Part shown: piece after piece, positions 12,537 through 52,407 of the stretch
Position numbering within the stretch: position 1 is the stretch's first letter
How the letters are laid out: the number at the start of each line of letters is the position of its first letter
Assembly (NCBI GenBank): GCA_030248195.1
Contig: JASAND010030463.1
Coordinates: 1 to 64,000, forward strand
Direction: 5' to 3'
Source of the DNA: Trissonchulus latispiculum
Taxonomy: Eukaryota; Nematoda; Enoplea; Enoplida; Ironidae
DNA: 64,000 nt
Translations under genes and position numbers: made by a program
The notes under the pieces: generated by a model
Seen by the model: only the letters and a program-made list of their open reading frames with translations
What the model was told of the DNA's origin: nothing
The model's database searches: none

Positions 12537-13730
12537 TCACTGGTCGGGTGTCAATTCCATCAAAAACGGTTTGAGTCTATTCACGTGAACAGTTTCAGGG
12601 GGGGCGTCTGAGTTGAGAGTAGATTGAATTTGACAATTGGTAGGAGAAATAACTTTAAGGACCCGAAACGGCCCCTCAAAAGCCGGGAGGTATTTACGGC
12701 TTGCCCCCTTCGGAATATTTGCCTTTGTAACGTCCTTCCAAACCATCATGCCTTCTTTATACGCAATAGTTTTGACTTTCGAATCATATTTATCCTTGCG
12801 TTTTTTCTGTGTGCAATATAATCATTCAAAAGTTTTCGAATATGTCGCATACGAGCACGAAGTTCATCTACATATGATGGTAAGAAATCAATAATTCGAG
12901 GTATAGGCGTTGTCAAAAAATTATCCGAAAAAAGCCGGGGGTCACGACCAAACAAGACATAATAAGGCGATTCCCCGGTCGAAGCATGTGGGACTGCGCG
13001 GTACGCAAACAGCACCCACGTGAGGAGTTCATCCCACCCCCGTTCATAGGCCAAAAGACATTTTCGTAGCATCCGTTTCAAGGTACCATTAAGTCTTTCA
13101 CACGCCCCATTGGATTCTGGGTGATAAGCTGTAGGACGTACATTTTTGGTGCCCATCAATTTACACAATTCCTCCATAAGGTGTGAGCAAAAGGGGCTGC
13201 CCCTATCGGTTAAAACCTCCCGGGGGGCCCCGTGAACCGCAATTATCTGTTCTGCAAAAATTCGTGCAATAGTAAGAGTCTGTTCATTTGGCATGGCAAA
13301 TGCCCAACCCCAACGTGAGAAAAAAATCGACCACCACCAATACTCTAGAATTTCCTTCCTTTGAGAGAGGAGCATGCATCACATCCATGCTCAACCTCTC
13401 AAAGGGAGCTTCGACCGGGGTAAACGCCTTCAGGTATGCCTGTGGTTTTGAGGGCCCCGGATTGCAAGCCGCACATACCCGACACCGGCTAATGTAGACC
13501 CCAATGTCCTTACTCATAGTGGGCCAATGGTATTTGAGGCTCAAAAACCTATACATTTTGGACCGTCCATTATGGCACCCACCCAATAGATCTTTGTGAC
13601 ATTCATCCAATACATACGTATAACAATTTTCCTGAACGACAATCAGTTTTGGGCGTTCCTGACGCTGAGATTTGCCAAGACGGTATAGGACACCCTCCTC
13701 CAGAAAAAATTCGCTCGAATGTTTTCGCAA
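12537..13730 (-). pseudogene. Gypsy integrase (HHCC, DDE core, GPY/F), frameshifted
   Basis: The upstream piece (13730-13284) carries a zinc-binding region (H..LLGGCHNGRSKMYRF ... CRVCAAC) and the first catalytic Asp in RLSMDVMHAP. A second frame (13375-12746) carries the second Asp in EVLTDRGSPF and the Glu in NGACERLNGTLKRM. A third frame (12749-12537) carries the GPY/F-type module (AFEGPFRVLKV, then VHVNRLKPF). There is no chromodomain after it. At least two frame changes (near 13,330 and 12,748) disable it. Confidence 0.85.
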
Positions 13731-13780
13731 AAACGTAGCGAAGTTTGCTTCAGATGGAAATTGCTTTTTCTCTAAAAAGT

Positions 13781-16275: not shown

Positions 16276-17497
16276 AAGGCAAGAGAAAAAACGCTATCAT
16301 CTTCAAAATCTGAATCAGTTGCCAACTTATACGTAAGGGCTGAGGCGACATGAAGGGGAGGAATACCCAAATTATCGTCGACTGCAAAGACCATATCATT
16401 GATATAAGGGTCCTGAGAGACACGAGCTTGAGAGACCACCAAAGGTTTCGAAAAGTTCGAACCGTCAGAAGCATAGTCTAAAGTGGGAATCACAGACCCC
16501 ACTACCGTAGATCGTGAAATAGATATGGGGGAATTTGTGGGATTGACCAATAAATACTCGAAAAAATGATCTTGTACTTCCACTACCCCAGCGTAGGGCA
16601 AAACTTTGTTGTCGTCAATAAAAGAATCGAACGGCTCAAAAAAATATAGAGGATCAGCGAGAGTAGAGGAGATACGGGCCTTTGCCCATTTCTCCGTGGA
16701 CGGGGGAATTTGTACGTCAATGGCCAGAACCACGGCAAAAGCCATTGCATCACCCAAGTCCCATTCGGCCCGAATTTCCTCAGGAGTGAGCATTTTTAGC
16801 CTCAATCCATTCATACTAACACGATTTTCAGAAAAAATAATATCCCAACTGTAAGCTTTCAAAAAATCAGTTCCGAGTAAAATATCACGATAAAATTGGG
16901 AGCAAGATGAAAATGCCACCCAAATTGAATTCCGCCCACTTCAAAAGGGATATAAACTTTTCCTTCGATACGTAGTGTGGTATCCCCCGAAGTTCTAGCC
17001 CTAACAGCATCTGGAAATTGAACCACAATGTCTGCTCCCGCTCTCAAAAGACGATCTAGGCCTCCCTGACTAATAATTGAAATAGAAGCGCCCGTTTCTA
17101 CAATGGCCATCAAATATTGACCCTTAATATTGATCATAACTGCTTGTGTATTGTCCCCAGCAGCTAAAACGGGTTCAGATTGCAAATCAGAAATAGAGTT
17201 GGGCACGACCACCAAAGAATGTAGGGGCTTTTCCGGAGCCGACACACCCCCCGGGGCGGGTCTGGATGGTGGATCCGCCGCACACCCAGACGCGCCCCCA
17301 CTGGCCCCAGTCCCAGAGGCCGCGTCAGCCACCGCACCCTGAGACTGAGGCACAGCGAGTCCCGCAGTCTGTTCCCAAGACGTCACAGTCGGTGAGGAAG
17401 ATTCCCCATTCAGAGAGAGCAGAGAGGGGGGGTCGGAACCCTCCTCCACGGGTTGGGCAACTTCGTCAGTTTCGGGCACCGTCACCTCACAGCCCAA
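16239..17497 (-). pseudogene. Gypsy protease region, frameshifted, Asp to Glu in active site
   Basis: A Ser/Pro/Ala-rich stretch is followed by a retropepsin-like segment with AIVETGASISIIS at about residues 132-144 of the 17497 frame. The usual catalytic motif is D-T/S-G; here the first residue is Glu. The downstream flap/GTDFLKAY-type segment (LLGTDFLKAYSWDI) lies in the next frame (16919-16239) after a frame change near 16,890. Either the protease is dead, or the change is a late mutation in a decaying copy. Confidence 0.75.
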
Positions 17498-38855: not shown

Positions 38856-38861
38856 TTCTAG
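38856..38861. repeat. Polinton target-site duplication, left
   Basis: TTCTAG directly precedes the left terminus; the same six bases directly follow the right terminus at 52402-52407. Confidence 0.95.
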
Positions 38862-39441
38862 AGTAGTATAGGAGAGATGAAATGACCGCAGTTTGTACAG
38901 GTATTTTGGCTTCATTCTGGCTTTGACGAATAGGGTCATTAATCATACAGGTAAGGTCATTAATCATGCAGGCAGATGTCTTTCAAGGTCATTGTTGGCC
39001 AATTTTCTTAGCTTACATAAGCTTTGTAACATTGTACTAAATTTTTAACACAGTGTTATTGGACTATATTGTCTACGTATGTAACTTTATCTACGTATTT
39101 AACTTTAAGTTTGCTAGACTATAGTTTGTTTACCTGCCTAATTAGTGTTTGTTAATTAACTGTCTAAGTACGTAAATTTAATTAAGTAACATTTTCAAAC
39201 TTTTATTTACCTGACTGTTTGTCAATGACGCTTCTGCTATCTATTTGCTTCAGAGTTGTAAAGCCCAACTATATTTCTACAAATTTTTTCCATTTTCCTT
39301 AAACAACTAAATTTTCCTTGCTTTTATTCTTCTATATGACATATGGACCTTTGTATTAACCTTGAAATGGAAGGAAGAAAATAAACACTTAAGGAATCCA
39401 AAATTTGTAGTTACGTACTTCAGATGACATGAGTCTCCCTA

Positions 39442-39831
39442 TTAGCTGCCTTTCTGCAGGCTCATAGGAATAACATACTGAGGACTCAAAGCTGTCACTA
39501 CTTTTCTCCCTGCTTGCTTAAAATTTTCTCTCCCTACTAGCGGGCTCATATGAATAACACACTGAGGACTCAAAGCTGTCAAAAGTCTTTCTCTCCCTAT
39601 TAGCAGCCTTCTAGCAGGCTCATAGGAATAACATACTGAGGACTCGAAGCTGTCAAAAGTCTTTCTCCCTACTAGCAGCCTTCTAGTAGGCTCATAGGAA
39701 TAACATACTGAGGACTCAAACCTGTCAAAACTCTTTCTCCCTACTAGCAGCCTGCTTGCTTTAAAAATTTTTCTCTCCCTGCTAGCAGGCTCATATGAAT
39801 AACACACTGAGGACTTTAACCTGTCTCCCAA
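39442..39831 (-). CDS. Outward-facing 129-aa repeat protein in left TIR
   Basis: The open frame consists of about five degenerate units (72-98 bp) each containing SSVCYSYEP and a RRLLVGRK-like basic block. The identical protein is encoded in the right TIR. The frame stays open because unit lengths keep phase. No signal peptide or known domain is seen. It could be an expressed protein or only a repeat array (a structural or binding-site role in the TIR) that happens to be open. Confidence 0.35.
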   Translation of the reverse strand: MGDRLKSSVCYSYEPASRERKIFKASRLLVGRKSFDRFESSVCYSYEPTRRLLVGRKTFDSFESSVCYSYEPARRLLIGRERLLTALSPQCVIHMSPLVGRENFKQAGRKVVTALSPQYVIPMSLQKGS

Positions 39832-40423
39832 AGCTTACCAATTCGCCTTATCTAGTTTGATTACGCCTGTCTCAATGAAATTAAAGACGTAAACAATAAA
39901 CATTGGTTGAAAATGAAAACTTTATGTCTCCAATTACGTAATATTGGCAACGCTTATCACATTAATTTTTGTGTCAACGTAAAGAGCAAACAATAGACTA
40001 ACTTCGGTCAACTAATTTTGTTTAGTAGTTAACTAATTAGTTAGTAATGATTTATTAAGTCAACTATGAAAATTGGTTGAAAATGGGTGATTATAATTTT
40101 ATATCTACGTAAGATTGGGAAAATTTGTTGGGTTAATTATGGTGCTAGTGTAATAAAATAATAATGAACTAACTTCGGTCACCTGTTGATAATTATAGGT
40201 TAACTAATTAGTTAATAATAATTAATTAAAGGTGACTCGGAAAATTTGTGTAATGAATATGACAATAATTACGTGATAATTGGGAATAGGCTAAAGGTTA
40301 AAAGAAAAGGACAATGCAACTTTTGTTCAATAATTAATGAACAAGGCAATACAAAATTGATATTTGTGTACAGTGTGCAGCCTATTTTATGAAACCTAGC
40401 ACAAGAATGCTGCAAAGTTTAGA

Positions 40424-40431
40424 CATATATT
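40424..40431 (+). promoter_or_regulatory. TATA-like box in left TIR
   Basis: CATATATT lies 66-73 bases before the ATG of the leader exon. The same box occurs in the right TIR (50832-50839). Candidate promoter for the end genes. Confidence 0.4.
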
Positions 40432-40496
40432 GCAAGTTTGGCAGGTTTATTAACCTTACTGACATTTGAATCACCATACTTTACATCACCACGACA

Positions 40497-40835
40497 ATGA
40501 ATTCCGGTAAGATATTTAATTGTAGCATTTTTAAAAGTTGTATTTTTAATGATTGCATTTTAGTAGTTGCATTTTTAGTCCTTCAAATTTTGATCGTCAC
40601 ATTTTTTAGCAGTTGTACAGTTTGAACATTCAACAATACTTCCCTGTTTACCTTACCTCGCCTCATCTCCAGCAGATCAGAATTGGATCGGTTTATTGAA
40701 GATATTGAAAGCAAAGATCATATTGAATGGGCGTTTCAACAGCGTCCTAACACTAAGTTTGTTGTACATGAAATTACTAATATGATGGTTACACTGTACT
40801 GTTTGACTGGCCATTGTGCAGTAAATATGCATTAA
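40497..40835 (+). CDS. Left-end gene, two exons, 54 aa, unknown
   Basis: Exon 1 is ATGAATTCCG (40497-40506) inside the TIR, followed by the donor GTAAGA. The acceptor is inferred at AGATCAG|AATTGG (exon 2 from 40681) because it is the choice that opens a frame with protein-like composition (LDRFIEDIESKDHIEWAFQQ) up to the TAA at 40835. Other nearby AGs (40667-40674) give a different, less protein-like frame. The intron is 174 bases, and the TIR ends inside it at 40631, so exon 2 is unique to this end. Function is unknown. Confidence 0.5.
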
Positions 40836-40857
40836 CAATGTAAATGCTATAGTCAAG

Positions 40858-41085
40858 ATTATTATTATTATTATTATGGTTACTACTTAATCACTGTTAT
40901 CAGTATTATTACTATCGTTATCAGTATTATTATTATTACTATTGTTATCAGTATTATTATTATTATCATTATTATTATTATTATTATTACTATTGTTATC
41001 AGTATTATTATTACTAATCCTATTATTATTATTATTACTATTATTATTACTATTATTATTATGGCTACTACTGTATAATCACTAT
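40858..41085. repeat. Imperfect (TTA)n/(ATT)n microsatellite
   Basis: Runs of ATT with interspersed ATC/ACT triplets lie between the left-end gene and the secreted-type gene. The apparent poly-Leu open frame across it is an artefact of the repeat. Confidence 0.9.
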
Positions 41086-41173
41086 GTTTATTATATTATT
41101 ACTAGTTATTATTGCATATTTTTACTAGTAAACTATTAACGAAATGTACAAGTCATTACATTAGACAAACTAC

Positions 41174-41512
41174 TTAGTAGTAGTATTCACTTAGGGCACC
41201 ACGTAGGTATTCAAGTTCTGTGGTGTTGGCAATCTTAAAGCCAGTCATTTTATCGTGGATAGACTGAAGGCGTCTGTCAGTATCGTAGCAGTACTCCCAA
41301 CATTGATCCCATTCAATGTAGCGACAGGCATTAGATCGATGGCTTAGATCACCCTCACGACACAGGTGTAGACTACAGTCCTTTAACCGGTGATATAGGT
41401 GATCACTTTCTAACACGGTGGTAACATTGCCTTGAGATAGCTGAATACCATTGTCGGTCTCTGTAATGTCTACAGAAGACACTATTGCGATTAGGCTCAG
41501 TAGTAGCAACAT
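41174..41512 (-). CDS. Small secreted Cys-rich Polinton protein, 112 aa
   Basis: The start at 41512 gives a clean signal peptide (MLLLLSLIAIVSSV) and then a mature part with six cysteines (CSLHLC, NACRYIEWDQCWEYC). An ATAAAAAG motif lies 40-47 bases upstream of the ATG. It is the last gene of the minus-strand block. A secreted or envelope-associated role is possible; no family recognised. Confidence 0.6.
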   Translation of the reverse strand: MLLLLSLIAIVSSVDITETDNGIQLSQGNVTTVLESDHLYHRLKDCSLHLCREGDLSHRSNACRYIEWDQCWEYCYDTDRRLQSIHDKMTGFKIANTTELEYLRGALSEYYY

Positions 41513-41543
41513 TATAACTTATAGCTCAAAATTATTAGTACAC

Positions 41544-42008
41544 CTATGCAGACTTTTTATGGGATTTCTGGCAGTAAGGTGTGGGTTCTAGTGTCACCCG
41601 ATCAACAAAGGTCTTGACAATGTTATCATTAGTGTCGCTTCTTCGCCTCAGATAGTTGACAATTGAGTCCATCGATCTTCCTCTAGCCCGGTGGTGAAGG
41701 AAGTATATACAGTACTCCCCACATACATCAGTAGTGAAATCTTGTAACTGAATGCGATTATACTGTAGTTCCCTCCTACCAATGTATGACATGAAGAGGA
41801 GAGGTGGTAGTCCGTAGCTGTCAAAATATTCTACCCTGTTATCCTCTAGCCACATTGCAACCCAGTGTTCTCCAGCCTCACCAGATGCCTCAGTGTTAGC
41901 AACAAGGCATCCTGGACGGTATCGTGGTAGCGTATCACTGGGAAATACTCCTAGGAGAGGAACTTTGCAATCTTTCCTTAAAGTCTCAAGGATCTCGCGT
42001 GTGTTCAT
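41544..42008 (-). CDS. Polinton adenain-like cysteine protease, 154 aa
   Basis: This is a maturation protease of the adenovirus/Ulp1 fold (C5/C48), expected to cut virion precursor proteins. The His lies in GEHWVAMW (H48), the acidic residue in EYFDSYG (D63), and the Cys in VCGEYCIYFL (C96/C100). Length is short but usual for Polintons. The start codon overlaps the stop of the capsid candidate by four bases (ATGA), indicating tight coupling. The C-terminus is basic (KSHKKSA). Confidence 0.88.
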   Translation of the reverse strand: MNTREILETLRKDCKVPLLGVFPSDTLPRYRPGCLVANTEASGEAGEHWVAMWLEDNRVEYFDSYGLPPLLFMSYIGRRELQYNRIQLQDFTTDVCGEYCIYFLHHRARGRSMDSIVNYLRRRSDTNDNIVKTFVDRVTLEPTPYCQKSHKKSA

Positions 42009-43321
42009 AGTGCGTAGTCAAAGAATGGCGTCCGATTATAGTCTATTGATATGAGATTATCAAATTCTCCGTATATAATGATTTCTACACCCTGGGGATA
42101 AGTGGCCGCTGGTAGGGCCTTTTCAAGTTGCATCCTCAGTGACACATCACCTTCCTTGATCAGTTGCATTGCCCCTGTATCAATATTGTCTGGTGTCAGG
42201 TCAAAGGCAAATATAGTGTATCCCTTGGCAAAGTCTTCGTAGGAAATGTCTGCTCCCTTGGTGGATCCGGCCATATCGTTGCCTTCGTAAAGGTATATAA
42301 AGGGCATCGTATATTGGAACTTATCCCATGCCATCTTCATTGGCTGCTTTGGTACAAACTCATCACCATACTTTAGGGCAATCTCACTGACATTACAGTG
42401 TTGGAACTCAAGGGGATTATGCTTCTGACTTCCATTGAATGCCTCTGACTTGACCATTGCCACTAGGACTCTACGAGGAAGTTGACCGGTGAATATGGAA
42501 TTCTCAACAACAGTCTGCACACCAGGAGCGATATGCCTTGTCACCAGTTTAGTCCTCCTGATTGGGTACTTGGCCGTCTCGTGATCTCTTAGTACACCTT
42601 CAATTGCCATGGTGAAGTCTTGTGGTCTGACTTTCCACACATACCAACGTATATCGTCGACTAAAAGTTTGTATCCACTGGTTGCTGACTGGAGGAGGAT
42701 GTCGTCACTGTTACGGTGTAATTCCAGACTCAACTGACACTCACTCAAAAGGTATCGGTCTTGCTTGAAGAGGTCGCAATGAAGGGGTCCTGCCACTACT
42801 ACATACCGGCCATCTGTAAATGGTATACCCCGATGCTTAGCTGCAGTAGTGGAGATATCATTGAAATCACTGTCCTTTGCAAATAGGTTACTCTGTAGGT
42901 GAGACGTCTTTGCTTCTTTCCCAAAGTTAGCTATAGTCTCCAGGTAGGCCCCATAGTGATAAAGGTCTCCACTATTGTAAATTTCTTTATCGGATAGTTT
43001 GACCACTAATCGTCTAATGAATGTCTTTGCTAGCATATTGATGGGTGCCACCGAGATACTACCATCGGCTGCCTTTGCTACTGCCTTTCCATCACTATCA
43101 GTTATCCTTAGCTTTAGGTAAAGGTAGTTCCGGTTCAGGTCAAGCATATAGGAGTCCTTTGGTACAAGGAATAGGTATGGACCATTACTGGTTACAGGAT
43201 TTAGGGGATAAATTTCTGCCATGTAGCCACTCTCCACACTGACCTGAGTTGGAGGTAGCGAGAAGAGATCCATTTCGGACTTGAAGCCCGGCATAGACCG
43301 TTCATCTACTTGCTTAGCCAT
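42005..43321 (-). CDS. Candidate major capsid protein, 438 aa
   Basis: The start at 43321 is followed by MDLFSLPPTQVSVESGYMAE, then the LDLNRNYLYLKLRITD segment and a long beta-rich sequence (VARRVLVAMVKSEAFNGS-like, IIIYGEFDNLISIDYNRTPF at the end). The N-terminal pattern (PPTQ.S.E, then L.L....L.LK.R) is shared with a family common in invertebrate Polinton-like DNA. Size, place beside the protease and high expression-style composition suggest the major capsid protein, but the double jelly-roll cannot be proven by eye. Alternatively it is a major tegument or penton-type protein. Confidence 0.55.
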   Translation of the reverse strand: MAKQVDERSMPGFKSEMDLFSLPPTQVSVESGYMAEIYPLNPVTSNGPYLFLVPKDSYMLDLNRNYLYLKLRITDSDGKAVAKAADGSISVAPINMLAKTFIRRLVVKLSDKEIYNSGDLYHYGAYLETIANFGKEAKTSHLQSNLFAKDSDFNDISTTAAKHRGIPFTDGRYVVVAGPLHCDLFKQDRYLLSECQLSLELHRNSDDILLQSATSGYKLLVDDIRWYVWKVRPQDFTMAIEGVLRDHETAKYPIRRTKLVTRHIAPGVQTVVENSIFTGQLPRRVLVAMVKSEAFNGSQKHNPLEFQHCNVSEIALKYGDEFVPKQPMKMAWDKFQYTMPFIYLYEGNDMAGSTKGADISYEDFAKGYTIFAFDLTPDNIDTGAMQLIKEGDVSLRMQLEKALPAATYPQGVEIIIYGEFDNLISIDYNRTPFFDYAL

Positions 43322-43362
43322 TGAAATAATTGTTAGCGTATTACTATAATTACACAGGGTAG

Positions 43363-43370
43363 GTTTTTAT
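43363..43370 (-). promoter_or_regulatory. ATAAAAAC motif before the capsid candidate
   Basis: ATAAAAAC is 42-49 bases before the ATG at 43321 and overlaps the end of the 128-aa gene. Confidence 0.35.
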
Positions 43371-43753
43371 GGGCTGTAAATATCGCGCTTCAATCTCTTA
43401 ACTTTGCGTCTATGTGGTCTGGAACCAATGCCTTCTCCTTGCTGTATTGCCTTTCCACTGTTCTCCAGCAGGCGTCCAATGGCTGCCTTCCCATGCCGTT
43501 TGAGTGCTTCTTTTGGATCTTCACCTCTATTCAAGTAATCACGAGCCACATCTCCGGCTGTCTGAAAGGCCTGCCTACCAGCCTCTAGACCTACACGACG
43601 TACTACTGGCCAAATAAAGCGTCCAATACCTCTCAAGAGGCTGCCTAGGCCATCTCCTCTCTGATAGCGTTGGCCGGCGTAGAAACCAGACCCTCTCTGT
43701 ATCAGGTGCAGTTGCCAGTCTTCAACGGTTTCTGGATGATATCTGGTCCTCAT
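43367..43753 (-). CDS. Small basic virion-type protein, 128 aa
   Basis: The protein is Gly/Arg-rich at the N-terminal part (GSGFYAGQRYQRGDGLGSLL, RGIGRFIWPVVRR) and ends in a basic tail (RPHRRKVKRLKRDIYS). The GLGSLLRGIGRF pattern resembles adenovirus minor core/pX- or pVI-like polypeptides and holds Gly motifs suitable as protease cleavage sites. It lies directly upstream of the capsid candidate. Confidence 0.5.
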   Translation of the reverse strand: MRTRYHPETVEDWQLHLIQRGSGFYAGQRYQRGDGLGSLLRGIGRFIWPVVRRVGLEAGRQAFQTAGDVARDYLNRGEDPKEALKRHGKAAIGRLLENSGKAIQQGEGIGSRPHRRKVKRLKRDIYSP

Positions 43754-44507
43754 CTTTCTTGAAGTGTAACTTGATAACTATACTACCATACTCAAAATGT
43801 ACACTTCTGCCAATGTGATTGTTTATATGGACTTTAATGCTATTGACCACATGCTTATTCACAGGGACGTAGTGAGGTTCAGGAGAGTACTGGATGGTAT
43901 CTCCATACTCTTCACCCGCCTTTACTACTGCCAGCAGGTTGCCGGTAGTTGTGCCCACCAGTTGTTATTTCACGATATCACAATGGACTTGAAGATAATG
44001 AAAGTTAAGGCTGGGTGGACGTTGTGCGTAGAATTTCTTTGTCCTAAGGGCATCTCTACCATCCTCTACAGTGAATTTCTGAGAGTCAAAGCCAAGCATG
44101 CGTACAATGGTAGGAGCAAATTGAATAAACCCGAAATTGGGTCTTTCAAGGTGTTCTGGATTTTCGTATAAGTCTAGGTAGACTCGATCCTTTTCCTGAT
44201 CATAGACGAAACGTATAGGAGGTGATTCCTGACGTTCATTTAGAATTGACTGAATGGTAAGGTTGATGGTGTTTATCAGATCGTGAAGGTTATAGTATCT
44301 CCGCCTGGGTATATTGCTAACTGCTCTCTCGTCTGCCTCAAATAGGACTATAATGAATGTGTCTGCATTAGAATTAATGGCTTTCCAAGTGTGAGGATAG
44401 ATAAAGTCAACCATTGCAACGGACCACCTGCCATGTAGATGCAGAGGGTGAGCTAGCTGGTTTTCAAAGGTTCCGTCCTTTCCGGTCACATACAGGTAGA
44501 AACTCAT
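43722..44507 (-). pseudogene. Structural protein paralogue 2, interrupted by one in-frame TAA
   Basis: The frame opens at 44507 (MSFYLYVTGKDGTF, then SVAMVDFIYPHTW). It runs 180 codons to a TAA at 43965-43967 and then stays open in the same frame to 43722, where the C-terminal segment (KVHINNHIGRSVHFEYGSIV) matches the C-terminus of the neighbouring 254-aa protein. Only one codon therefore breaks it. The downstream part could restart at a GTG at 43958, or the stop could be a recent mutation. The start overlaps the paralogue's stop by four bases. Confidence 0.7.
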
Positions 44508-45268
44508 CTTCGCTTTCGGAAGTGTAACTTAGCAAAGACCTTTCCGTATTCAAAGTCTACCGCCATACCGTGATCATCCTTTATATGTATTTCAATACTA
44601 TCAAACTCCTTTCTTAGCACTGGTATATAGTGTGGATTATTGTATATTCGATCAACAGTATCATTATGCTTACCCTCGATACTGACAACACGAATGATGG
44701 GAGCAATGGTGTTTCCTATCATTTGCGGTGCCACAACGTCGCAGTAGATGAAGAGGGAATATAGTCCGCCTCTCAGGTCTGGTGCATTAGCGGCCACTGC
44801 GTATCTAGGTGGTGAAACTGTCTTTTCCTTTGGAACGACCTTTGTGTCAGAGTATCCTAGCATATACTTTAGCTGTTTACTAAAGTGTAACGCCTTAAAG
44901 TCCGGCTCTTCATCTAGGGTAGTAGGTTTAAGTCCGACACGTCTATGAAGTTCATCATAGGCCAATTCACAATTGATCTTCTTTGTTAGCTCAAGGGTAT
45001 AGTTAATGGCATCACAGAGTTGAAATATTGATTCATAGTTGTTCAGTGGAATGTGATTATGGAATGTCTTCTTACCAACTGTCACTCCAAGTTTTGCATC
45101 ATCCTTGTTTCCTACATTGAACCAAGTGACAGGATATCCAAGCTCTACAAGTGCCACCTCCCATTCACCTTCGAGGTCAACACGATGAGGAAGTTTGACT
45201 CGGAAATTGTGCAGTTTGTTTGTTGGATAGTCTGCTGTATTACTGGGTAGGTATAGGTAAAAATCCAT
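44504..45268 (-). CDS. Structural protein paralogue 1, 254 aa
   Basis: The protein begins MDFYLYLPSNTADYPTNKLH, followed by WEVALVELGYPVTWFNV, and ends with IEIHIKDDHGMAVDFEYGK. The same N- and C-terminal blocks occur in the downstream neighbour, so the pair is a tandem duplication. Such proteins recur in invertebrate Polinton-like elements, and a minor capsid/penton or fibre role fits by position. The start at 45268 overlaps the integrase end by 28 bases. Confidence 0.55.
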   Translation of the reverse strand: MDFYLYLPSNTADYPTNKLHNFRVKLPHRVDLEGEWEVALVELGYPVTWFNVGNKDDAKLGVTVGKKTFHNHIPLNNYESIFQLCDAINYTLELTKKINCELAYDELHRRVGLKPTTLDEEPDFKALHFSKQLKYMLGYSDTKVVPKEKTVSPPRYAVAANAPDLRGGLYSLFIYCDVVAPQMIGNTIAPIIRVVSIEGKHNDTVDRIYNNPHYIPVLRKEFDSIEIHIKDDHGMAVDFEYGKVFAKLHFRKRR

Positions 45269-46359
45269 TGTCTTCAGTTATCCAACTGTTGAACTTGTCA
45301 GGGTATCCAAGCCACTTGACAAAATACTCTTTACAACCCTTTCGACGCCTGGTTTTTATAACTTTTTCTACCCAATAGGTGTCTGGTTCGTCAACCTTTT
45401 GTACTTCAGGCTGGTAGAATCCGCCGACCACCTCTTCGCCACCATAGTCTTCTAGGAGGTACATGGGTGGGTCACCTGTCCTGACACTTCTGATACGGAA
45501 CAACTCTTCTGACCAATTAGGGAGGTATCCTTTGTCAAAGAGACCCTTTGTTTTGCTAATTCGGACCATATCTTCCTTCTTCAATTTATTTTCACTTGGC
45601 TGACTCTGGGTTGTTTTCTGGGATGCACGTCTGAGTGCCCTGTTAACCTCTTCCATATTTTCAGGTTTCGATGCCTCCACTGGCGTCATACGAATACTCC
45701 TGTGGCGAGCATTGTTGTAGCCTTCCACGAGTTGAGGAAGGTCATCAATATACCTATACGATCTGGTCTTTGTAAAGTATTTCCATATCTTTGTCTTGAT
45801 GGTTCGATTGAAACGTTCAACGAGGCTACACTTGATCACTGGATTATTGCATGTATAAAAGTTGATGTGGTTCGCCTTGAGGAGTGACTGGAAATCTTTG
45901 TTCAAAAATTCTTTGCCTCTGTCTGACTGTAGGTGTTGTGGTCGTCTGCCATCTGCCAGTATTTTACGAAAAGCTCTAGTCATCTCTTGACCACCCTTGC
46001 TTTTAACTGGGATCACCCATGCGTACTTGGAGAAGACGTCAATACAGTTGAATAGGTACTTGTAGCCATCATTCTTGTCTGCTATAGCTACCATATCTGC
46101 CAGGTCTATTTGCCATAGGTCGTCGATACCGGCCACCTGATACCTCCTCGTTTGGAATCTGTGTCTAACTGGTTTATGGATGCTGTAAGTGTACTGTTTC
46201 TCCAACCAATCAGTGACCAACCAATTTGGACCTCGAGATTCCATGTCTTTTTGCCTCCTGATACACCCGATTAATACCGCCAAATGCTGCAGGACTTTGC
46301 GGATCATAGTAAATCTTCTCTAAGGTGGTGTTATCAGTATTCTCTAGTGCCGCTTCCAT
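45240..46359 (-). pseudogene. Polinton integrase with chromodomain, one frameshift
   Basis: The start is taken at the ATG at 46359 (MEAALENTDNTTLEK), which leads into YYDPQSPAAFGGINRVYQEA, the usual Polinton integrase N-terminus. A frame change near 46,230 separates this from the rest. The core has Asp in DLWQIDLADM, Asp in LQSDRGKEF and Glu in LVERFNRTIK (35 residues after the second Asp). The C-terminal chromodomain reads YWVEKVIKTRRRKGCKEYFV then KWLGYPDKFNSWI. The catalytic triad is complete, so the damage is the frameshift only (real or a sequence error). Confidence 0.9.
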
Positions 46360-46369
46360 TTGAGTTTTC

Positions 46370-46861
46370 TTAGGGCTGACCTAATTCCTTGCCCTGTCTG
46401 TACCGTGGGTTTCCGATAAGTTCTCGAGGTACGTTGCTGTCTCTTAGTGCCTTTGCCAAAGTTTGCCACCCTGTTGCCGGTGGTTGACTGGGTCTGTTAC
46501 GAATGAAGTCGTGAATCAGATCATATATTCTAGATCCAACTGCTGGCTGACCCTGATACTCTATTTCACCTCGACTGTTAACCTTGAGACCGGGTATACT
46601 CATAATATGTTCAATCAGATGTCTACCTTTCTGTTGCAGTGTTGGGGGTAAGGTAGATACAATGTCTGGCATAGCATGGGACTTGAGGGTCATCTCCGTA
46701 GGTCTATCTCGTAGTATTCGACGCCTGTAGTCTGCCTGTTTAAACAATTTACTCTTGATATCTGCTGGTAGTTTAGACTTGAGAACATTGCTAGCTTCCT
46801 TCTCCAACACCCTTGTGTGCTCATCAAAGTAGTCTGGCTTAACTAGTATTGAGTATTCCAT
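46370..46861 (-). CDS. Conserved Polinton protein of unknown function, ~163 aa
   Basis: The start at the ATG at 46861 (MEYSILVKPDYFDEHTRV) is preferred to the upstream start at 46879 because an AATAAAAACTG motif lies 24-31 bases before it. The middle part (TLPPTLQQKGRHLIEHIMSI, then YQGQPAVGSRIYDLIHDFIR) is helix-rich with a basic C-terminus. Position between integrase and the small hydrophobic protein is typical of Polinton core blocks. No enzyme motif is seen. Confidence 0.6.
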   Translation of the reverse strand: MEYSILVKPDYFDEHTRVLEKEASNVLKSKLPADIKSKLFKQADYRRRILRDRPTEMTLKSHAMPDIVSTLPPTLQQKGRHLIEHIMSIPGLKVNSRGEIEYQGQPAVGSRIYDLIHDFIRNRPSQPPATGWQTLAKALRDSNVPRELIGNPRYRQGKELGQP

Positions 46862-46884
46862 CGTTACTTTGCTCACCAATGTCA

Positions 46885-46892
46885 GTTTTTAT
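46885..46892 (-). promoter_or_regulatory. ATAAAAAC motif before the 163-aa gene
   Basis: ATAAAAAC(TGAC) is 24-31 bases before the ATG at 46861. It includes an AATAAA, so a polyadenylation signal of the preceding gene is an alternative reading. Confidence 0.4.
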
Positions 46893-47227
46893 TATCTTAT
46901 GAGATTTCCGAGTAGCCCACTGACGATACCTACAATAGGTCCCAGGAGAGCAGGTAAAAATCCTCCGTGCTGAATGATTAGTTTCTTCTTCTTCTTAAGA
47001 CTGACTCGTTTCTTTCTTAGGGCTCTTAGGGCGTGTTTATATCTTGCTAATCTCTTCTTGTCTTTCTGGGAAATCTTTACGTTGCCAGACAGGATATTTT
47101 CTGCACAGTCACATATAGCTTTAATGAGGTCGGAACTTCCATGAAGAACAATTGCCTCTCTTTGCTTACGACTTTTGCAACGACACAATAGTCGCAGTGT
47201 ATCGATATTTCTTTCAAAACGATCCAT
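46892..47227 (-). CDS. Small basic protein with hydrophobic C-terminus, 111 aa
   Basis: A Cys-containing N-terminal part (LLCRCKSRKQREAIVLHG) precedes a Lys/Arg-rich segment (RALRKKRVSLKKKKKL) and a hydrophobic Gly-rich C-terminus (FLPALLGPIVGIVSGLLGNL). This combination recalls membrane-active or DNA-condensing small virion proteins of adeno-like viruses. An ATAAAAAC motif lies 25-32 bases upstream of the ATG. Confidence 0.55.
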   Translation of the reverse strand: MDRFERNIDTLRLLCRCKSRKQREAIVLHGSSDLIKAICDCAENILSGNVKISQKDKKRLARYKHALRALRKKRVSLKKKKKLIIQHGGFLPALLGPIVGIVSGLLGNLIR

Positions 47228-47232
47228 GATTA

Positions 47233-47880
47233 CTATTTCTTGATATTGTCAGTTTTTATGGAATATACGTCGGTATAAGGATCATCTGGGAAAATATGCC
47301 CTCTGAGGCGGAGTTTCTCTGGTGTGTTCTGGTCTAGGTCTATCAGTAGATATCCATGTGGTCTACTGGTGGCATGCTCAAAAGCTTCCATAAATCCTTT
47401 CACTCTACCTGGATACATTTGTCTTGCCAAGTTCATCGGTGTTAGCTTATCTGCTGGATTCTTCATGAGGACAATATACTGACTATTTATCCGATTAGTC
47501 CGCTGCCTATCGTAGAATATATCTTGAGTGATATTGATGACACTACAGGACCAATGGTGGCAACCGCGGGTGAACAGTTGAACAAGGTTAGGTTGCTGCT
47601 TAATTTCGCTCATCAGGTCATCAAGTACTACCAATTTTGCGTCAGGAGTTTTCAATTTCTCTAGATCCGGTAGACCTTTGATAAATTCTACCTGGGGAAG
47701 TCTATCGTATGCATCTTGCCACTCAGTATAACACCAAATAATCTTCTCTGGAGGTTCTGATATCATTTCATCTGCATGTTCCACCAGTCGAGACACAAAG
47801 GTGGTCTTTCCTGCCTTTGTTGGAGCCGCCACGATACACGTGAACGGATGCTGAAACTTTGGTGTCCTAACTCTCTCCAT
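47233..47880 (-). CDS. Polinton DNA-packaging ATPase, 215 aa
   Basis: Walker A is AAPTKAGKTTF (residues 18-28), and Walker B is LVVLDDLM (83-90), followed by a SVINITQDIFYD sensor-like segment around residue 112. The length and the short N-terminus before the P-loop match the A32/FtsK-HerA-type ATPases of Polintons and adintoviruses, which pump DNA into capsids. An ATATAAAC motif lies 24-31 bases upstream. It sits in the usual neighbourhood of core genes. Confidence 0.9.
   Translation of the reverse strand: MERVRTPKFQHPFTCIVAAPTKAGKTTFVSRLVEHADEMISEPPEKIIWCYTEWQDAYDRLPQVEFIKGLPDLEKLKTPDAKLVVLDDLMSEIKQQPNLVQLFTRGCHHWSCSVINITQDIFYDRQRTNRINSQYIVLMKNPADKLTPMNLARQMYPGRVKGFMEAFEHATSRPHGYLLIDLDQNTPEKLRLRGHIFPDDPYTDVYSIKTDNIKK
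47252..47259 (-). promoter_or_regulatory. ATAAAAAC motif before the 111-aa gene
   Basis: ATAAAAAC(TGAC) is 25-32 bases before the ATG at 47227 and overlaps the end of the ATPase gene. See the promoter finding. Confidence 0.4.
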
Positions 47881-47903
47881 ACTTACTATGAAAACACCAA
47901 CGC

Positions 47904-47911
47904 TGTTTATA
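47904..47911 (-). promoter_or_regulatory. ATATAAAC motif before the ATPase gene
   Basis: ATATAAAC is 24-31 bases before the ATG at 47880, at the same spacing as the two ATAAAAAC motifs downstream. Confidence 0.4.
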
Positions 47912-48102
47912 TGACTTTATTGTAGTGCAAAACACAATAACGATTAGTCACGGTCATATTTCTTCATACAGTGCAAAACACAATACATATATACATACAC
48001 AATAGTCACTATAGTGTCAAATTTGTTCTTCGTTATCTTTCTTCATATCATTCTTCGTGATATTTGTATCATCATCATTTCGTAGTATCCATAATATCTT
48101 CA

Positions 48103-48318
48103 TCATTTCGTAGTATCCATCATATCTTCATCATCGAGAATAAGTTCTTCCACTACTTCGTCTTCATTGATCAGTTGCTTCATATCGACATGTAGAATTC
48201 GTCGCCATCCAATGCCAGGAATAGAAATGATTATCTTTTGCCTCGGATATCGTCTGCATTTATTCTTGTGATAGCGGCTGAGGCGGATCAGGCTTTGGAG
48301 TGCCTTATAGATACCCAT
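48103..48318 (-). CDS. Small Polinton protein, 71 aa, unknown
   Basis: The N-terminal half is basic (LSRYHKNKCRRYPRQK) and the C-terminal half acidic (NEDEVVEELILDDEDMMD). There are no motifs. Short direct repeats (gtgcaaaacacaata; atttcgtagtatccat) occupy the gap to the ATPase gene. It may be a real small gene or chance. Confidence 0.4.
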   Translation of the reverse strand: MGIYKALQSLIRLSRYHKNKCRRYPRQKIIISIPGIGWRRILHVDMKQLINEDEVVEELILDDEDMMDTTK

Positions 48319-48369
48319 GGTGCAATATATGGAATAAATGTGGTATTTACACCAGTATCGTAGGCCTAC

Positions 48370-48819
48370 TTATTGACTATAGAGCTGGTATATCTGGTCT
48401 GCTGTAAAACTGACAGGACCAACAAAGCCACAAAGGACACGCTTATCTTGATCCAGGCAAAGAGTTGTCTCGTTATATGTGGATGTGTAGGGACACGGTA
48501 TCGACCCGTTAATATAGACAGGGCACTGGAAGTTTAGACAGTTGTAGATGAATTGGCGAATCTCGTGAAAGCTATCAAGTGATACAAGGTGCTCGGTCCA
48601 ACCATTATGAATAAAGATGGCATTGTCTACCGTAACGGAGTCCTTCATTGGCGGTAGCTTACACTGGGTATGCTGTGACAACAAAATCGCTAATACAATC
48701 GTAGACAATAAAAATTTTATGAGAAGGCTTGTGATTATACAGGGAACTCCTTTGACCAATTGGAGTTTCGTATAGTTTAAAAAGGAATGCCCTTCTTGGG
48801 AATTTGCACCAGTAGCCAT
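48370..48819 (-). CDS. Probable membrane/secreted glycoprotein, 149 aa
   Basis: A hydrophobic segment PCIITSLLIKFLLSTIVLAI (residues ~26-46) could be a signal anchor or signal peptide. The following part has six cysteines and several N-glycosylation sites (NGSI, NETT). The N-terminal part overlaps the neighbouring frame (48659-48955). It may be a virion surface protein; family not recognised. Confidence 0.5.
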   Translation of the reverse strand: MATGANSQEGHSFLNYTKLQLVKGVPCIITSLLIKFLLSTIVLAILLSQHTQCKLPPMKDSVTVDNAIFIHNGWTEHLVSLDSFHEIRQFIYNCLNFQCPVYINGSIPCPYTSTYNETTLCLDQDKRVLCGFVGPVSFTADQIYQLYSQ

Positions 48820-48955
48820 AGTCAGGATCTTGTACGGCGCACTTTACCAGTACCTCTATTCGCTTCTTATTACCATAGAACTTAGATGCCGTCTTTGTAT
48901 TAGCCCTACTACCATGCTTTTTATAGACGTGAGGCGATACCTTAGTGTTCCACAT
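48659..48955 (-). CDS. Small basic protein, ~98 aa, unknown
   Basis: The first ATG in the frame is at 48955 (MWNTKVSPHVYKKHGSRANT); the open frame extends upstream without an ATG. Lys/Arg-rich with CAVQDPDYGYWC. It is divergent from the TBP-like gene and shares 161 bases with the start of the glycoprotein gene in another frame. Confidence 0.4.
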   Translation of the reverse strand: MWNTKVSPHVYKKHGSRANTKTASKFYGNKKRIEVLVKCAVQDPDYGYWCKFPRRAFLFKLYETPIGQRSSLYNHKPSHKIFIVYDCISDFVVTAYPV

Positions 48956-48990
48956 TAATAAGTGAGGGAGAGGATACCAAGGGGGTAACA

Positions 48991-49485
48991 ATGATTGTTA
49001 ATGTTGTTCTCAGTGGACGGTTTGACAGGGAACTTCACATTACGAACATTCCTAACATTAGACTCTATCGTGGGTTTATTGGCGGTAGTCTGAAACACGA
49101 AGAGGCGACTTTCCAACTGTTCACGAGTGGTAGTTTTGTTTGCCTCGGATGTAAATCAATCGAACGAGCTAATCAGTGCATTCGTCAACTAGCACGCGCT
49201 CTTAATGTCGGTATTCTTCGCGAAGGCGAAGTGGTGAACCTGGTGGGATCCTTCTCAGTTGGCAGGTATATAGACCTAAGGGATTTATATGAAAGTATCA
49301 GGCATACCCATCAAGTTTGCTATGAACCGGAGCTATTTAATGGTCTCACATGCAAGATTGCCGGGGTTACTGCACTCATCTTCCACACTGGCAAGGTCAT
49401 ATTAACTGGTGCTCGGAGTGAGTCTGCCCTATCAGATGCAAGGTCTTTAGTTAATAAGAAGGTGATAAGGTTTAAAGTTCATTAG
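48991..49485 (+). CDS. TATA-binding-protein (TBP) homologue, 164 aa
   Basis: TBP is the saddle-shaped factor that bends TATA DNA and starts transcription by RNA polymerase. Both TBP half-repeats are visible. Repeat 1 (residues ~2-73) includes FQLFTSGSFVCLGCKSIERA. Repeat 2 (~84-162) includes NLVGSFSVGRYIDL, CYEPELFNGL and TALIFHTGKVILTGARSE. The F-x-(S/T)-G-(K/S)-(hydrophobic)-(hydrophobic)-x-(T/L)-G-(A/C)-(R/K)-S strands that touch DNA are kept. The length equals one TBP core with no N-terminal tail. The gene is intact, on the opposite strand to the virion block, and followed after 6 bases by another small gene. Confidence 0.9.
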   Translation: MIVNVVLSGRFDRELHITNIPNIRLYRGFIGGSLKHEEATFQLFTSGSFVCLGCKSIERANQCIRQLARALNVGILREGEVVNLVGSFSVGRYIDLRDLYESIRHTHQVCYEPELFNGLTCKIAGVTALIFHTGKVILTGARSESALSDARSLVNKKVIRFKVH

Positions 49486-49491
49486 TGCATC

Positions 49492-49878
49492 ATGTCTGCC
49501 CGAAGCCTGTTGAACGAACTGTTACAAAAGGCCCTGCGCCAAAGTCCGCCTATTCGCATTGAGATTACCGGTCATTATGTTGCAGTCATGACTATAGGCA
49601 GTAAGTCCTGGACAAGCTCACAATGTCCTGACCCACGTACTGCCATTGAGGAGGTGTCTCGTAAAGCCTACGGTACGTTGTGTCACGGCGACGAACATCT
49701 GATCAGACGTGAATGCGGATTACCACCAAGACCTCATATCTACGAAATTGATGCAGTCAGGGATAAGATGAGGGACCTACGTGAATACAAAAGATATCGC
49801 AGAAGTATTCAACCTATCTACAATATGCTAGACAGGCTAGAAGCAGAAATGCTTAAAAATCCGTTTTTTCATGGCTAA
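49492..49878 (+). CDS. Polinton protein of unknown function, 128 aa (dsRBD-like?)
   Basis: It starts 6 bases after the TBP-like gene's stop, so the two are probably co-transcribed. Residues ~3-61 follow a helix (SLLNELLQKAL), strands (IRIEITGHYVAVMTIGSKSW) and helix (RTAIEEVSRKAYGTL) pattern that resembles the order of a double-stranded-RNA-binding domain. The hallmark GxGxSKK loop is missing. The remainder is helical and charged (RDKMRDLREYKRYRRS). Confidence 0.5.
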   Translation: MSARSLLNELLQKALRQSPPIRIEITGHYVAVMTIGSKSWTSSQCPDPRTAIEEVSRKAYGTLCHGDEHLIRRECGLPPRPHIYEIDAVRDKMRDLREYKRYRRSIQPIYNMLDRLEAEMLKNPFFHG

Positions 49879-49879
49879 C

Positions 49880-50090
49880 TGCCTACCTACCAACTAATGT
49901 TATCCGTAACATTTCGTTTACTGTATGCAACATTTTACAGTGTTATGCAATACAATACTGTTATTCAATAATAATGGTTAACAGTGTTATGCAATAATAA
50001 TAGTAATAATAACAGTCAATGGTTTACTGTACTTGAGTAATGCCATATGAGTCAATAATAGTAATAATAATAGTCAATGGTGCTATGCAA
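49880..50090. other. AT-rich gap between convergent genes
   Basis: Short AATAATAGT-type repeats and several copies of caatggt/cagtgttatgcaat; no gene. It probably holds the 3' ends of the plus-strand pair and of the CARD gene. Confidence 0.5.
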
Positions 50091-50093
50091 TTG

Positions 50094-50766
50094 TTAGTGT
50101 TCTTTGCAATCCTGATGATTCCACGGAGATACGAACCATTCCGGCACATTCCACTGTTTCACCATAGAATTTCCAATCCACTCGATGAATACGACGGCAA
50201 GGTTGTCGCATCCCAAGGGTCCAAGGGCCATCGCTGCGTCCAGTCTCGCTGCTTGTACCGTAGGGAAGGTGTCCTGGCTTTCTTTTAGCAAATATTTGCT
50301 CTTTGTGTAAATCTTCCACGTGACCCCTTTCTCCTTGGTTCCTCCTTCGAATAGTTTGGCCAAGTTGTACTGCTTCGACTTCACCAAGGCTTCGTGTAGA
50401 AGGGGCACGATATCTTTGCTCCGCTTCAGTCGCAGTAGGAGATCAAACACTCCATCGTATCTTGTTTCGGACTTGATGATATCTCGATAATCCGGGGTTA
50501 TGCGCCGATGTTCAACCATGTAGTCTGCCACGGGCGCTGGATCCATTTCATCACAAAGAATAACCAAATTATCAATTATTTTCTCCACAGATGGTGAGCC
50601 TGAAACAAATAATGCTAATCTAAAAACTACGGAATGTTCAAACTGTACAACTGCTAAAAAATGTGACGATCAAAATTTGAAGGACTAAAAATGCAACTAC
50701 TAAAATGCAATCATTAAAAATACAACTTTTAAAAATGCTACAATTAAATATCTTACCGGAATTCAT
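50094..50766 (-). CDS. Spliced CARD-domain protein, 171 aa
   Basis: Exon 1 is ATGAATTCCG (50766-50757) inside the right TIR, with donor GTAAGA. The acceptor TTTGTTTCAG ends at 50600 and exon 2 runs 50599-50094 in frame. Residues ~8-87 match a caspase-recruitment domain: LVILCDEMDPAPVADYMVEH, then ITPDYRDIIKSETRYDGVFD and LLLRLKRSKDIVPLLHEALV, ending YNLAKLF. CARDs bind other CARDs in apoptosis and innate signalling, so the protein is likely to act on host cell-death or immune pathways. The C-terminal ~80 residues (IYTKSKYLLKESQDTFPTVQ ...) are unassigned. The 157-base intron contains the TIR edge. Confidence 0.72.
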
Positions 50767-50831
50767 TGTCGTGGTGATGTAAAGTATGGTGATTCAAATG
50801 TCAGTAAGGTTAATAAACCTGCCAAACTTGC

Positions 50832-50839
50832 AATATATG
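50832..50839 (-). promoter_or_regulatory. TATA-like box in right TIR
   Basis: CATATATT counterpart of 40424-40431, 66-73 bases upstream of the CARD gene ATG. Confidence 0.4.
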
Positions 50840-51431
50840 TCTAAACTTTGCAGCATTCTTGTGCTAGGTTTCATAAAATAGGCTGCACACTGTACACAAA
50901 TATCAATTTTGTATTGCCTTGTTCATTAATTATTGAACAAAAGTTGCATTGTCCTTTTCTTTTAACCTTTAGCCTATTCCCAATTATCACGTAATTGTTG
51001 TCATATTCATTACACAAATTTTCCGAGTCACCTTTAATTAATTATTATTAACTAATTAGTTAACCTATAATTATCAACAGGTGACCGAAGTTAGTTCATT
51101 ATTATTTTATTACACTAGCACCATAATTAACCCAACAAATTTTCCCAATCTTACGTAGATATAAAATTATAATCACCCATTTTCAACCAATTTTCATAGT
51201 TGACTTAATAAATCATTACTAACTAATTAGTTAACTACTAAACAAAATTAGTTGACCGAAGTTAGTCTATTGTTTGCTCTTTACGTTGACACAAAAATTA
51301 ATGTGATAAGCGTTGCCAATATTACGTAATTGGAGACATAAAGTTTTCATTTTCAACCAATGTTTATTGTTTACGTCTTTAATTTCATTGAGACAGGCGT
51401 AATCAAACTAGATAAGGCGAATTGGTAAGCT

Positions 51432-51821
51432 TTGGGAGACAGGTTAAAGTCCTCAGTGTGTTATTCATATGAGCCTGCTAGCAGGGAGAGAAAAATTTTT
51501 AAAGCAAGCAGGCTGCTAGTAGGGAGAAAGAGTTTTGACAGGTTTGAGTCCTCAGTATGTTATTCCTATGAGCCTACTAGAAGGCTGCTAGTAGGGAGAA
51601 AGACTTTTGACAGCTTCGAGTCCTCAGTATGTTATTCCTATGAGCCTGCTAGAAGGCTGCTAATAGGGAGAGAAAGACTTTTGACAGCTTTGAGTCCTCA
51701 GTGTGTTATTCATATGAGCCCGCTAGTAGGGAGAGAAAATTTTAAGCAAGCAGGGAGAAAAGTAGTGACAGCTTTGAGTCCTCAGTATGTTATTCCTATG
51801 AGCCTGCAGAAAGGCAGCTAA
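51432..51821 (+). CDS. Outward-facing 129-aa repeat protein in right TIR
   Basis: Identical at the protein level to the frame at 39442-39831 in the left TIR, and likewise directed toward the outer end of the element. The sharing says only that the TIRs are homogenised, not that it is expressed. Confidence 0.35.
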   Translation: MGDRLKSSVCYSYEPASRERKIFKASRLLVGRKSFDRFESSVCYSYEPTRRLLVGRKTFDSFESSVCYSYEPARRLLIGRERLLTALSPQCVIHMSPLVGRENFKQAGRKVVTALSPQYVIPMSLQKGS

Positions 51822-52401
51822 CAGGGAGACTCATGTCATCTGAAGCACGTAACTACAAATTTTGGATTCCTTAAGTGTTTATTTTCTTCCTTCCATTTCA
51901 AGGTTAATACAAAGGTCCATATGTCATATAGAAGAATAAAAGCAAGGAAAATTTAGTTGTTTAAGGAAAATGGAAAAAATTTGTAGAAATATAGTTGGGC
52001 TTTACAACTCTGAAGCAAATAGATAGCAGAAGCGTCATTGACAAACAGTCAGGTAAATAAAAGTTTGAAAATGTTACTTAATTAAATTTACGTACTTAGA
52101 CAGTTAATTAACAAACACTAATTAGGCAGGTAAACAAACTATAGTCTAGCAAACTTAAAGTTAAATACGTAGATAAAGTTACATACGTAGACAATATAGT
52201 CCAATAACACTGTGTTAAAAATTTAGTACAATGTTACAAAGCTTATGTAAGCTAAGAAAATTGGCCAACAATGACCTTGAAAGACATCTGCCTGCATGAT
52301 TAATGACCTTACCTGTATGATTAATGACCCTATTCGTCAAAGCCAGAATGAAGCCAAAATACCTGTACAAACTGCGGTCATTTCATCTCTCCTATACTAC
52401 T

Positions 52402-52407
52402 TTCTAG
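52402..52407. repeat. Polinton target-site duplication, right
   Basis: TTCTAG, identical to 38856-38861. Confidence 0.95.

What the first reader, a model, noticed from the sequence alone, without database searches (positions are those of the whole stretch)
40497..50766. Inverted repeats act as a shared promoter-plus-first-exon cassette for two different end genes
Both TIRs contain the same TATA-like box, ATGAATTCCG start exon and GTAAGA donor, facing inward. In each case the TIR ends inside the following intron (40631 and 50632), so the acceptor and second exon are unique. At the right this gives an in-frame CARD protein, at the left an in-frame 54-aa protein. One regulatory cassette, kept identical by TIR homogenisation, would thus express whatever exon lies just inside it. 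This is a simple way for such elements to acquire and swap cargo genes.
Basis: partly seen in the sequence, partly recalled or inferred. Interest (0 to 1): 0.92.

Follow-up and report, generated by a model that had tools for sequence, protein, structure and literature searches.

The report
Shared start exon in transposon ends
A virus-like mobile DNA element carries the start of a split gene inside its long end repeats, so the same start exon sits at both ends; at one end it probably begins a real gene, while at the other end no convincing gene follows.

Summary
The sequence facts largely hold. The element is larger than stated: 38862-52401, with 1770-bp terminal inverted repeats (TIRs; 3 mismatches), AGTAGT ends and a 6-bp target duplication, TTCTAG. 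It resembles Polintons/Mavericks: it has an integrase domain and a TBP gene, but its longest ATG-started reading frame is 438 aa, so no PolB-sized one. Both TIRs carry the same ATG, 10-nt exon and GTAAGA donor.

Right end: a start exon spliced to a 167-codon second exon is well supported as sequence. The arrangement arose in 0 of 1000 shuffles and 0 of 13 other element ORFs; coding signal is present in exon 2 and absent just before it. Splicing was not observed. Four acceptors fit, two inside the TIR. The CARD label is weak.

Left end: the 54-aa protein is not supported. Its length is matched in 100 of 2000 shuffles, codon usage is unremarkable (109/1000), and acceptors with better pyrimidine tracts give another frame.

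The duplicated cassette is real; two expressed genes and cargo swapping are not shown. No related element could be retrieved. HSV-1 US1/US12 is a close precedent.

The parts
38862..40631 (+). left terminal inverted repeat, 1770 bp
   Evidence: 99.83% identical to the right one, 3 mismatches
50632..52401 (-). right terminal inverted repeat, 1770 bp
38856..38861 (.). target site duplication TTCTAG, left
52402..52407 (.). target site duplication TTCTAG, right
40497..40506 (+). leader exon (ATG plus 7 nt), left copy; donor GT at 40507
50757..50766 (-). leader exon, right copy; donor GT at 50756-50755
50600..50756 (-). putative right intron, if the acceptor before 50599 is used; other fitting acceptors before 50653, 50650 and 50614
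50094..50599 (-). right second exon with stop, 167 codons from 50597, CARD-like (unproven)
40673..40676 (+). alternative left exon-2 starts (40673, 40676) with better pyrimidine tracts, other frame
40426..40453 (+). weak TATA-like words TATATT (-71) and TATTAA (-49) upstream of the leader ATG
45240..46307 (-). integrase ORF: rve core and chromodomain
   Evidence: Pfam 3.4e-15 and 5.3e-09
42005..43321 (-). 438-aa ORF, possible double-jelly-roll capsid protein (weak)
   Evidence: Pfam DJR-like E 0.058, below cut-off
48991..49485 (+). TATA-binding protein gene
   Evidence: Pfam 6.1e-29; PDB TBP 8.4e-17

Best explanation
This is a Polinton/Maverick-like integrated element whose long TIRs reach past the promoter, start codon and first splice donor of an end gene and stop inside its first intron. 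Shown: the repeats, the duplicated leader, the phases, the target duplication. Inferred: on the right the leader is spliced to a unique second exon (best acceptor 50599) and yields a protein of about 171 aa that may be CARD-like. On the left the same promoter and leader are present and could make an inward transcript, but no supported second exon follows, so the left copy is most likely a by-product of the TIR having grown or been converted across the 5' end of the right-hand gene. A boundary inside an intron is harmless to the gene on the right, because everything before the acceptor can be exchanged between the ends without changing the protein. The layout is like that of HSV-1 US1/US12, with a start codon added to the shared exon.
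For: TIRs, ends and TSD. Right arm: four acceptors passing the same criteria join in frame to 167-185 codons; 0 of 1000 upstream shuffles, 0 of 13 other element ORFs, and one other place in the whole window on both strands (15324, minus strand, inside a retroelement-like region) meet the same criteria. ORF length not reached in 2000 shuffles. The frame has no ATG between the stop at 50672 and the junction. Codon usage like the core genes in exon 2 (2 of 1000 nucleotide shuffles as good; 12 of 1000 for its first 50 codons), no signal in the open intron part (760 of 1000). The weak CARD match disappears if the protein starts at the internal ATG 50546. Left arm: no coding support.
Against: No RNA evidence. 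No relative could be compared. The search criteria were fixed after seeing the case. Starting at the internal ATG at 50546 also gives 150 aa. No AATAAA or ATTAAA inward within about 0.9 kb (left) and 1.4 kb (right) of the leader ATG. The left ORF is borderline in length (5% of shuffles) and could be a real short protein: 10 of 46 core-gene pieces of 50 codons also failed the codon test.
Confidence: 0.6

Rival explanations
1. One reading: one TIR cassette drives two different functional split genes, a CARD protein on the right and a 54-aa protein on the left, and lets the element swap cargo exons.
For: Identical leader and donor on both sides and an in-frame 50-codon second exon on the left with acceptor 40681.
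Against: 50 codons or more arise in 100 of 2000 shuffles; codon usage 109 of 1000 although 36 of 46 core pieces of the same length reach p 0.05; no Pfam match; acceptors with stronger pyrimidine tracts lie upstream and give another frame.
Confidence: 0.2
2. The right-hand gene is unspliced and starts at the internal ATG at 50546; the ATG and donor in the TIR are a coincidence.
For: The 150-aa ORF from 50546. Indels and frame breaks show that not every feature of this copy need be functional. The reading of the context around that ATG as favourable is by eye.
Against: 0 of 1000 shuffles and 0 of 13 control ORFs show a comparable split start; the weak CARD match needs residues before that ATG, though a match this weak says little.
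Confidence: 0.17
3. The TIR ATG starts a complete, unspliced 42-codon ORF that ends at 40623-40625, six bases inside the TIR, so that the TIR carries a whole small gene in two copies.
For: The ORF exists in both arms.
Against: As long or longer in 149 of 2000 shuffles; no codon signal (319 of 1000); no use for the donor.
Confidence: 0.03

Closest known systems
HSV-1 US1 (ICP22) and US12 (ICP47)
   Same: One promoter is present in two copies in inverted repeats and serves a different gene at each end of the unique region (PMC10541914, passage; the passage prints ul12 for the second gene); both genes use the same splice sites in the repeat (PMC6597130, passages).
   Different: In HSV-1 the shared intron is in the 5' UTR and both genes are real; here the shared exon carries the start codon and only one second exon is supported. 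No relationship between the viruses is implied.
Polinton/Maverick elements
   Same: Integrase with rve core, long TIRs, AGTAGT ends, 6-bp target duplication (the end motif (AGT)2 and the 6-bp TSD are in PMC8097293, passages).
   Different: No PolB-sized reading frame; a TBP gene; a probable spliceosomal intron, whereas PMC8097293 reports no introns in genes of intact vertebrate elements (passage).
Tlr1 element and polinton-like viruses
   Same: Integrase without pPolB is described for Tlr1 (PMC11071308, passages).
   Different: Tlr1 has a large helicase protein; no ORF of such size is present here.
MuDR of maize (recalled)
   Same: A TIR next to mudrA and a TIR next to mudrB, and the inner part of the mudrA-side TIR corresponds to the mudrA transcript (PMC8224964, passages).
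   Different: That both TIRs act as promoters is recalled, not taken from the passages. No shared coding exon is known to me there.

Membership tests
Polinton/Maverick | retroviral-type integrase | tested here: met
   rve 3.4e-15 and Chromo 5.3e-09
Polinton/Maverick | long TIRs, AG-type ends and 6-bp target duplication | tested here: met
Polinton/Maverick | protein-primed DNA polymerase B | tested here: not met
   largest ATG-started ORF in the element is 438 aa; so it is called Polinton-like, not a member. Short PolB fragments were not searched for separately
Polinton/Maverick | double-jelly-roll major capsid protein | tested here: inconclusive
   DJR-like E 0.058, below the curated cut-off
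Polinton/Maverick | packaging ATPase and cysteine protease | tested here: inconclusive
   215-aa ORF with only Pox_A32 E 0.057; 154-aa ORF without a Pfam match. The names ATPase and ULP1-type protease for these ORFs are by eye
CARD proteins | significant match to the CARD profile | tested here: not met
   E 0.088, 13.3 bits against a cut-off of 23.9, though over profile positions 7-84 of 85; 4 of 10 shuffles hit some other family as well or better
CARD proteins | CARD fold in a model | not testable with these tools
shared-leader inverted-repeat genes of the HSV-1 US1/US12 type | spliced transcripts from both repeat copies | not testable with these tools
   no RNA data are held
shared-leader inverted-repeat genes of the HSV-1 US1/US12 type | first exon and donor inside identical inverted repeats, genes ending in unique sequence | tested here: met
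   (sequence level; right side only for a supported second exon)

The most novel reading that the evidence does not exclude
The TIRs of this Polinton-like element are an exchangeable early-gene cassette (promoter, start codon, donor) that is kept identical between the ends and can be joined to any exon placed just inside it, while the capsid-region genes use a separate ATAWAAA box that the element's own TBP may read, so that the element has two expression classes.
Probability: 0.15. Interest if true: 0.8.

Novelty: new variant of a known kind. Interest (0 to 1): 0.5.

Why it matters
If the right-hand gene is really started from the repeat, repeat conversion and gene regulation are linked: the promoter and start of an end gene are present twice and can be corrected from the other end. 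That would give these elements a simple route for changing end genes, and it gives a concrete prediction, spliced reads from one leader into different second exons. An intron in a Maverick-type gene would itself be unusual, since intact vertebrate Mavericks were reported to have none (PMC8097293, passage). The TBP gene and the shared ATAWAAA box suggest that such an element can direct its own transcription.

Tried and rejected
Homology between the unique parts next to the two TIRs: a MAFFT alignment showed, by eye, no likeness beyond ATT-rich tracts, and no further copy of the TIR, of the inner arms or of the 13 ORF proteins given was found elsewhere in the window.

Relatives: viral-contig scans with the 438-aa protein, integrase, 215-aa, 254-aa, TBP, right exon 2, an exact 21-base pattern over the leader, and the 154-aa protein found none (8 of 8 scans used); genome contigs with the 438-aa protein found none. 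These single-sequence scans reach close relatives only.

CARD by sequence against solved structures: three of four hits are designed filament proteins, one a conserved protein, no CARD chain. Rfam: no match in the window. NCBIfam: only transposase models for the integrase passed E 1e-3, all below their cut-offs.

Literature: no paper found describes a Polinton TIR carrying a first exon; this rests on the listings (2 of 2 and 20 of 21 papers shown), and the papers listed there were not opened for it. Polinton with TATA-binding protein: 3 papers, one opened in passages, not a Polinton. Polinton with caspase: 4 papers, none on this by title.

Codon test caveats: two of 13 core ORFs (149 aa and TBP) score below zero when left out of training, and the 149-aa ORF scores worse than one of its shifted frames; the TBP shuffle control was run with TBP in the training set.

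Full report
What is there. The element spans 38862-52401 (13,540 bp). Its TIRs, 38862-40631 and 50632-52401, are 1770 bp long with 3 mismatches; it begins AGTAGTATA and is flanked by TTCTAG on both sides. A 6-bp duplication and (AGT)2 ends are reported for vertebrate Mavericks (PMC8097293, passages). Inside are an integrase ORF with chromodomain, a TBP gene and a weak double-jelly-roll match. The longest ATG-started ORF is 438 aa, so no PolB-sized frame exists. It is therefore filed as Polinton-like, not as a full Polinton.

The leader. Both TIRs carry ATG plus 7 nt and then GTAAGA, 40497 and 50766, with the TIR ending 125 bases into the intron on each side. The only mismatches lie further out, at 39417, 39441 and 40266, so the leader and intron start are identical.

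Right arm. Four acceptors that pass one set of criteria join the 10-nt exon in frame to 167-185 codons: 50653, 50650, 50614 and 50599. The criteria (G before GTAAG, exon up to 60 nt, intron 50-300 nt, YAG with at least 60% pyrimidines, 100 codons or more) were fixed after the case was seen. With them, 0 of 1000 dinucleotide shuffles of the upstream stretch and 0 of 13 other element ORFs (at 90 codons or more) gave a candidate; scanning the whole window on both strands at 150 codons or more gave one other place, at 15324 on the minus strand. The exon-2 frame has no ATG between its upstream stop at 50672 and the junction. Codon usage matches the core genes from 50597 on (2 of 1000 shuffles as good; first 50 codons 12 of 1000), while the open stretch 50669-50598 shows nothing (760 of 1000). 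This places the start of coding near 50599.

The CARD label. The only Pfam hit is CARD, E 0.088, 13.3 bits against a cut-off of 23.9, over profile positions 7-84 of 85; it is lost if the protein starts at the internal ATG 50546. As a control, ten residue shuffles of the same protein were scanned: 4 of 10 hit some family at E 0.088 or better (0.0085, 0.029, 0.034, 0.083), none of them CARD. Sequence search of solved structures found no CARD chain. The label is a lead, no more.

Left arm. Acceptors 40673 and 40676 have better pyrimidine tracts and give 36 and 35 codons in another frame. An unspliced 42-codon ORF also fits inside the TIR, with 149 of 2000 shuffles as long. So the left arm is a copy of the 5' end of a gene without a supported body.

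Promoters. The best shared 7-letter word (one two-fold position allowed) in 14 upstream windows of the internal ORFs is ATAWAAA, in 8 of 14; 0 of 200 shuffles and 0 of 200 sets of random positions reach 8. CATAWAAA is in 6 of 14; 0 of 200 shuffles but 1 of 200 random-position sets reach 6. All seven interior CATAWAAA sites are on the minus strand, six of them 33-80 nt before an ORF start; none is in the TIR. The TIR leader has only TATATT at -71 and TATTAA at -49. If the TIR is a promoter, it is of another kind than those of the internal genes.

Mechanism. Most likely the TIR grew, or was converted, across the 5' end of the right-hand gene and stopped in its first intron. Everything before the acceptor can then be exchanged between the ends without harm. 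Shown: the repeats, leader, phases and controls. Inferred: transcription, splicing, direction of the duplication. I put the split start of the right gene at about 0.75, the whole statement at 0.6, a functional left gene at 0.2.

Known systems. HSV-1 has the closest layout: the US1 promoter is present twice in the inverted repeat and the other copy drives another gene (PMC10541914, passage), and ICP22 and ICP47 share their splice sites in the 5' UTR (PMC6597130, passages). The difference is the start codon in the shared exon. Intact vertebrate Mavericks were reported without introns (PMC8097293, passage). I saw no report of a TIR-borne first exon in Polintons in the listings.

Limits.

Noticed in passing
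48991-49485 (+): The element encodes a TATA-binding protein (Pfam 6.1e-29; PDB TBP 8.4e-17).
   Followed up: partly
41561, 43371, 43829, 44587, 47260, 47913 (minus strand): CATAWAAA boxes 33-80 nt upstream of six internal ORFs, absent from the TIR; a possible promoter class of the element.
   Followed up: partly
45240-46359 (-): The integrase looks broken: what I take, from recall, for its N-terminal part (46210-46359) lies in another frame than the rest. No family matched the short part.
   Followed up: partly
43722-45268 (-): Two paralogous genes in tandem: a 254-aa ORF and a second copy split into 180-aa and 78-aa frames (28% and 38% identity to the first).
   Followed up: partly
39533-39753 and its mirror in the right TIR: Three tandem copies of a 72-bp unit inside the TIR, of unknown role.
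   Followed up: no
39889-40249: Two direct repeats of about 190 bp, 67.5% alike, inside the TIR.
   Followed up: no
40858-41062: A long ATT tract between the left arm and the first core gene.
   Followed up: no
12746-16919 (-): ORFs that look by eye like reverse transcriptase and integrase of an LTR retroelement; not searched.
   Followed up: no
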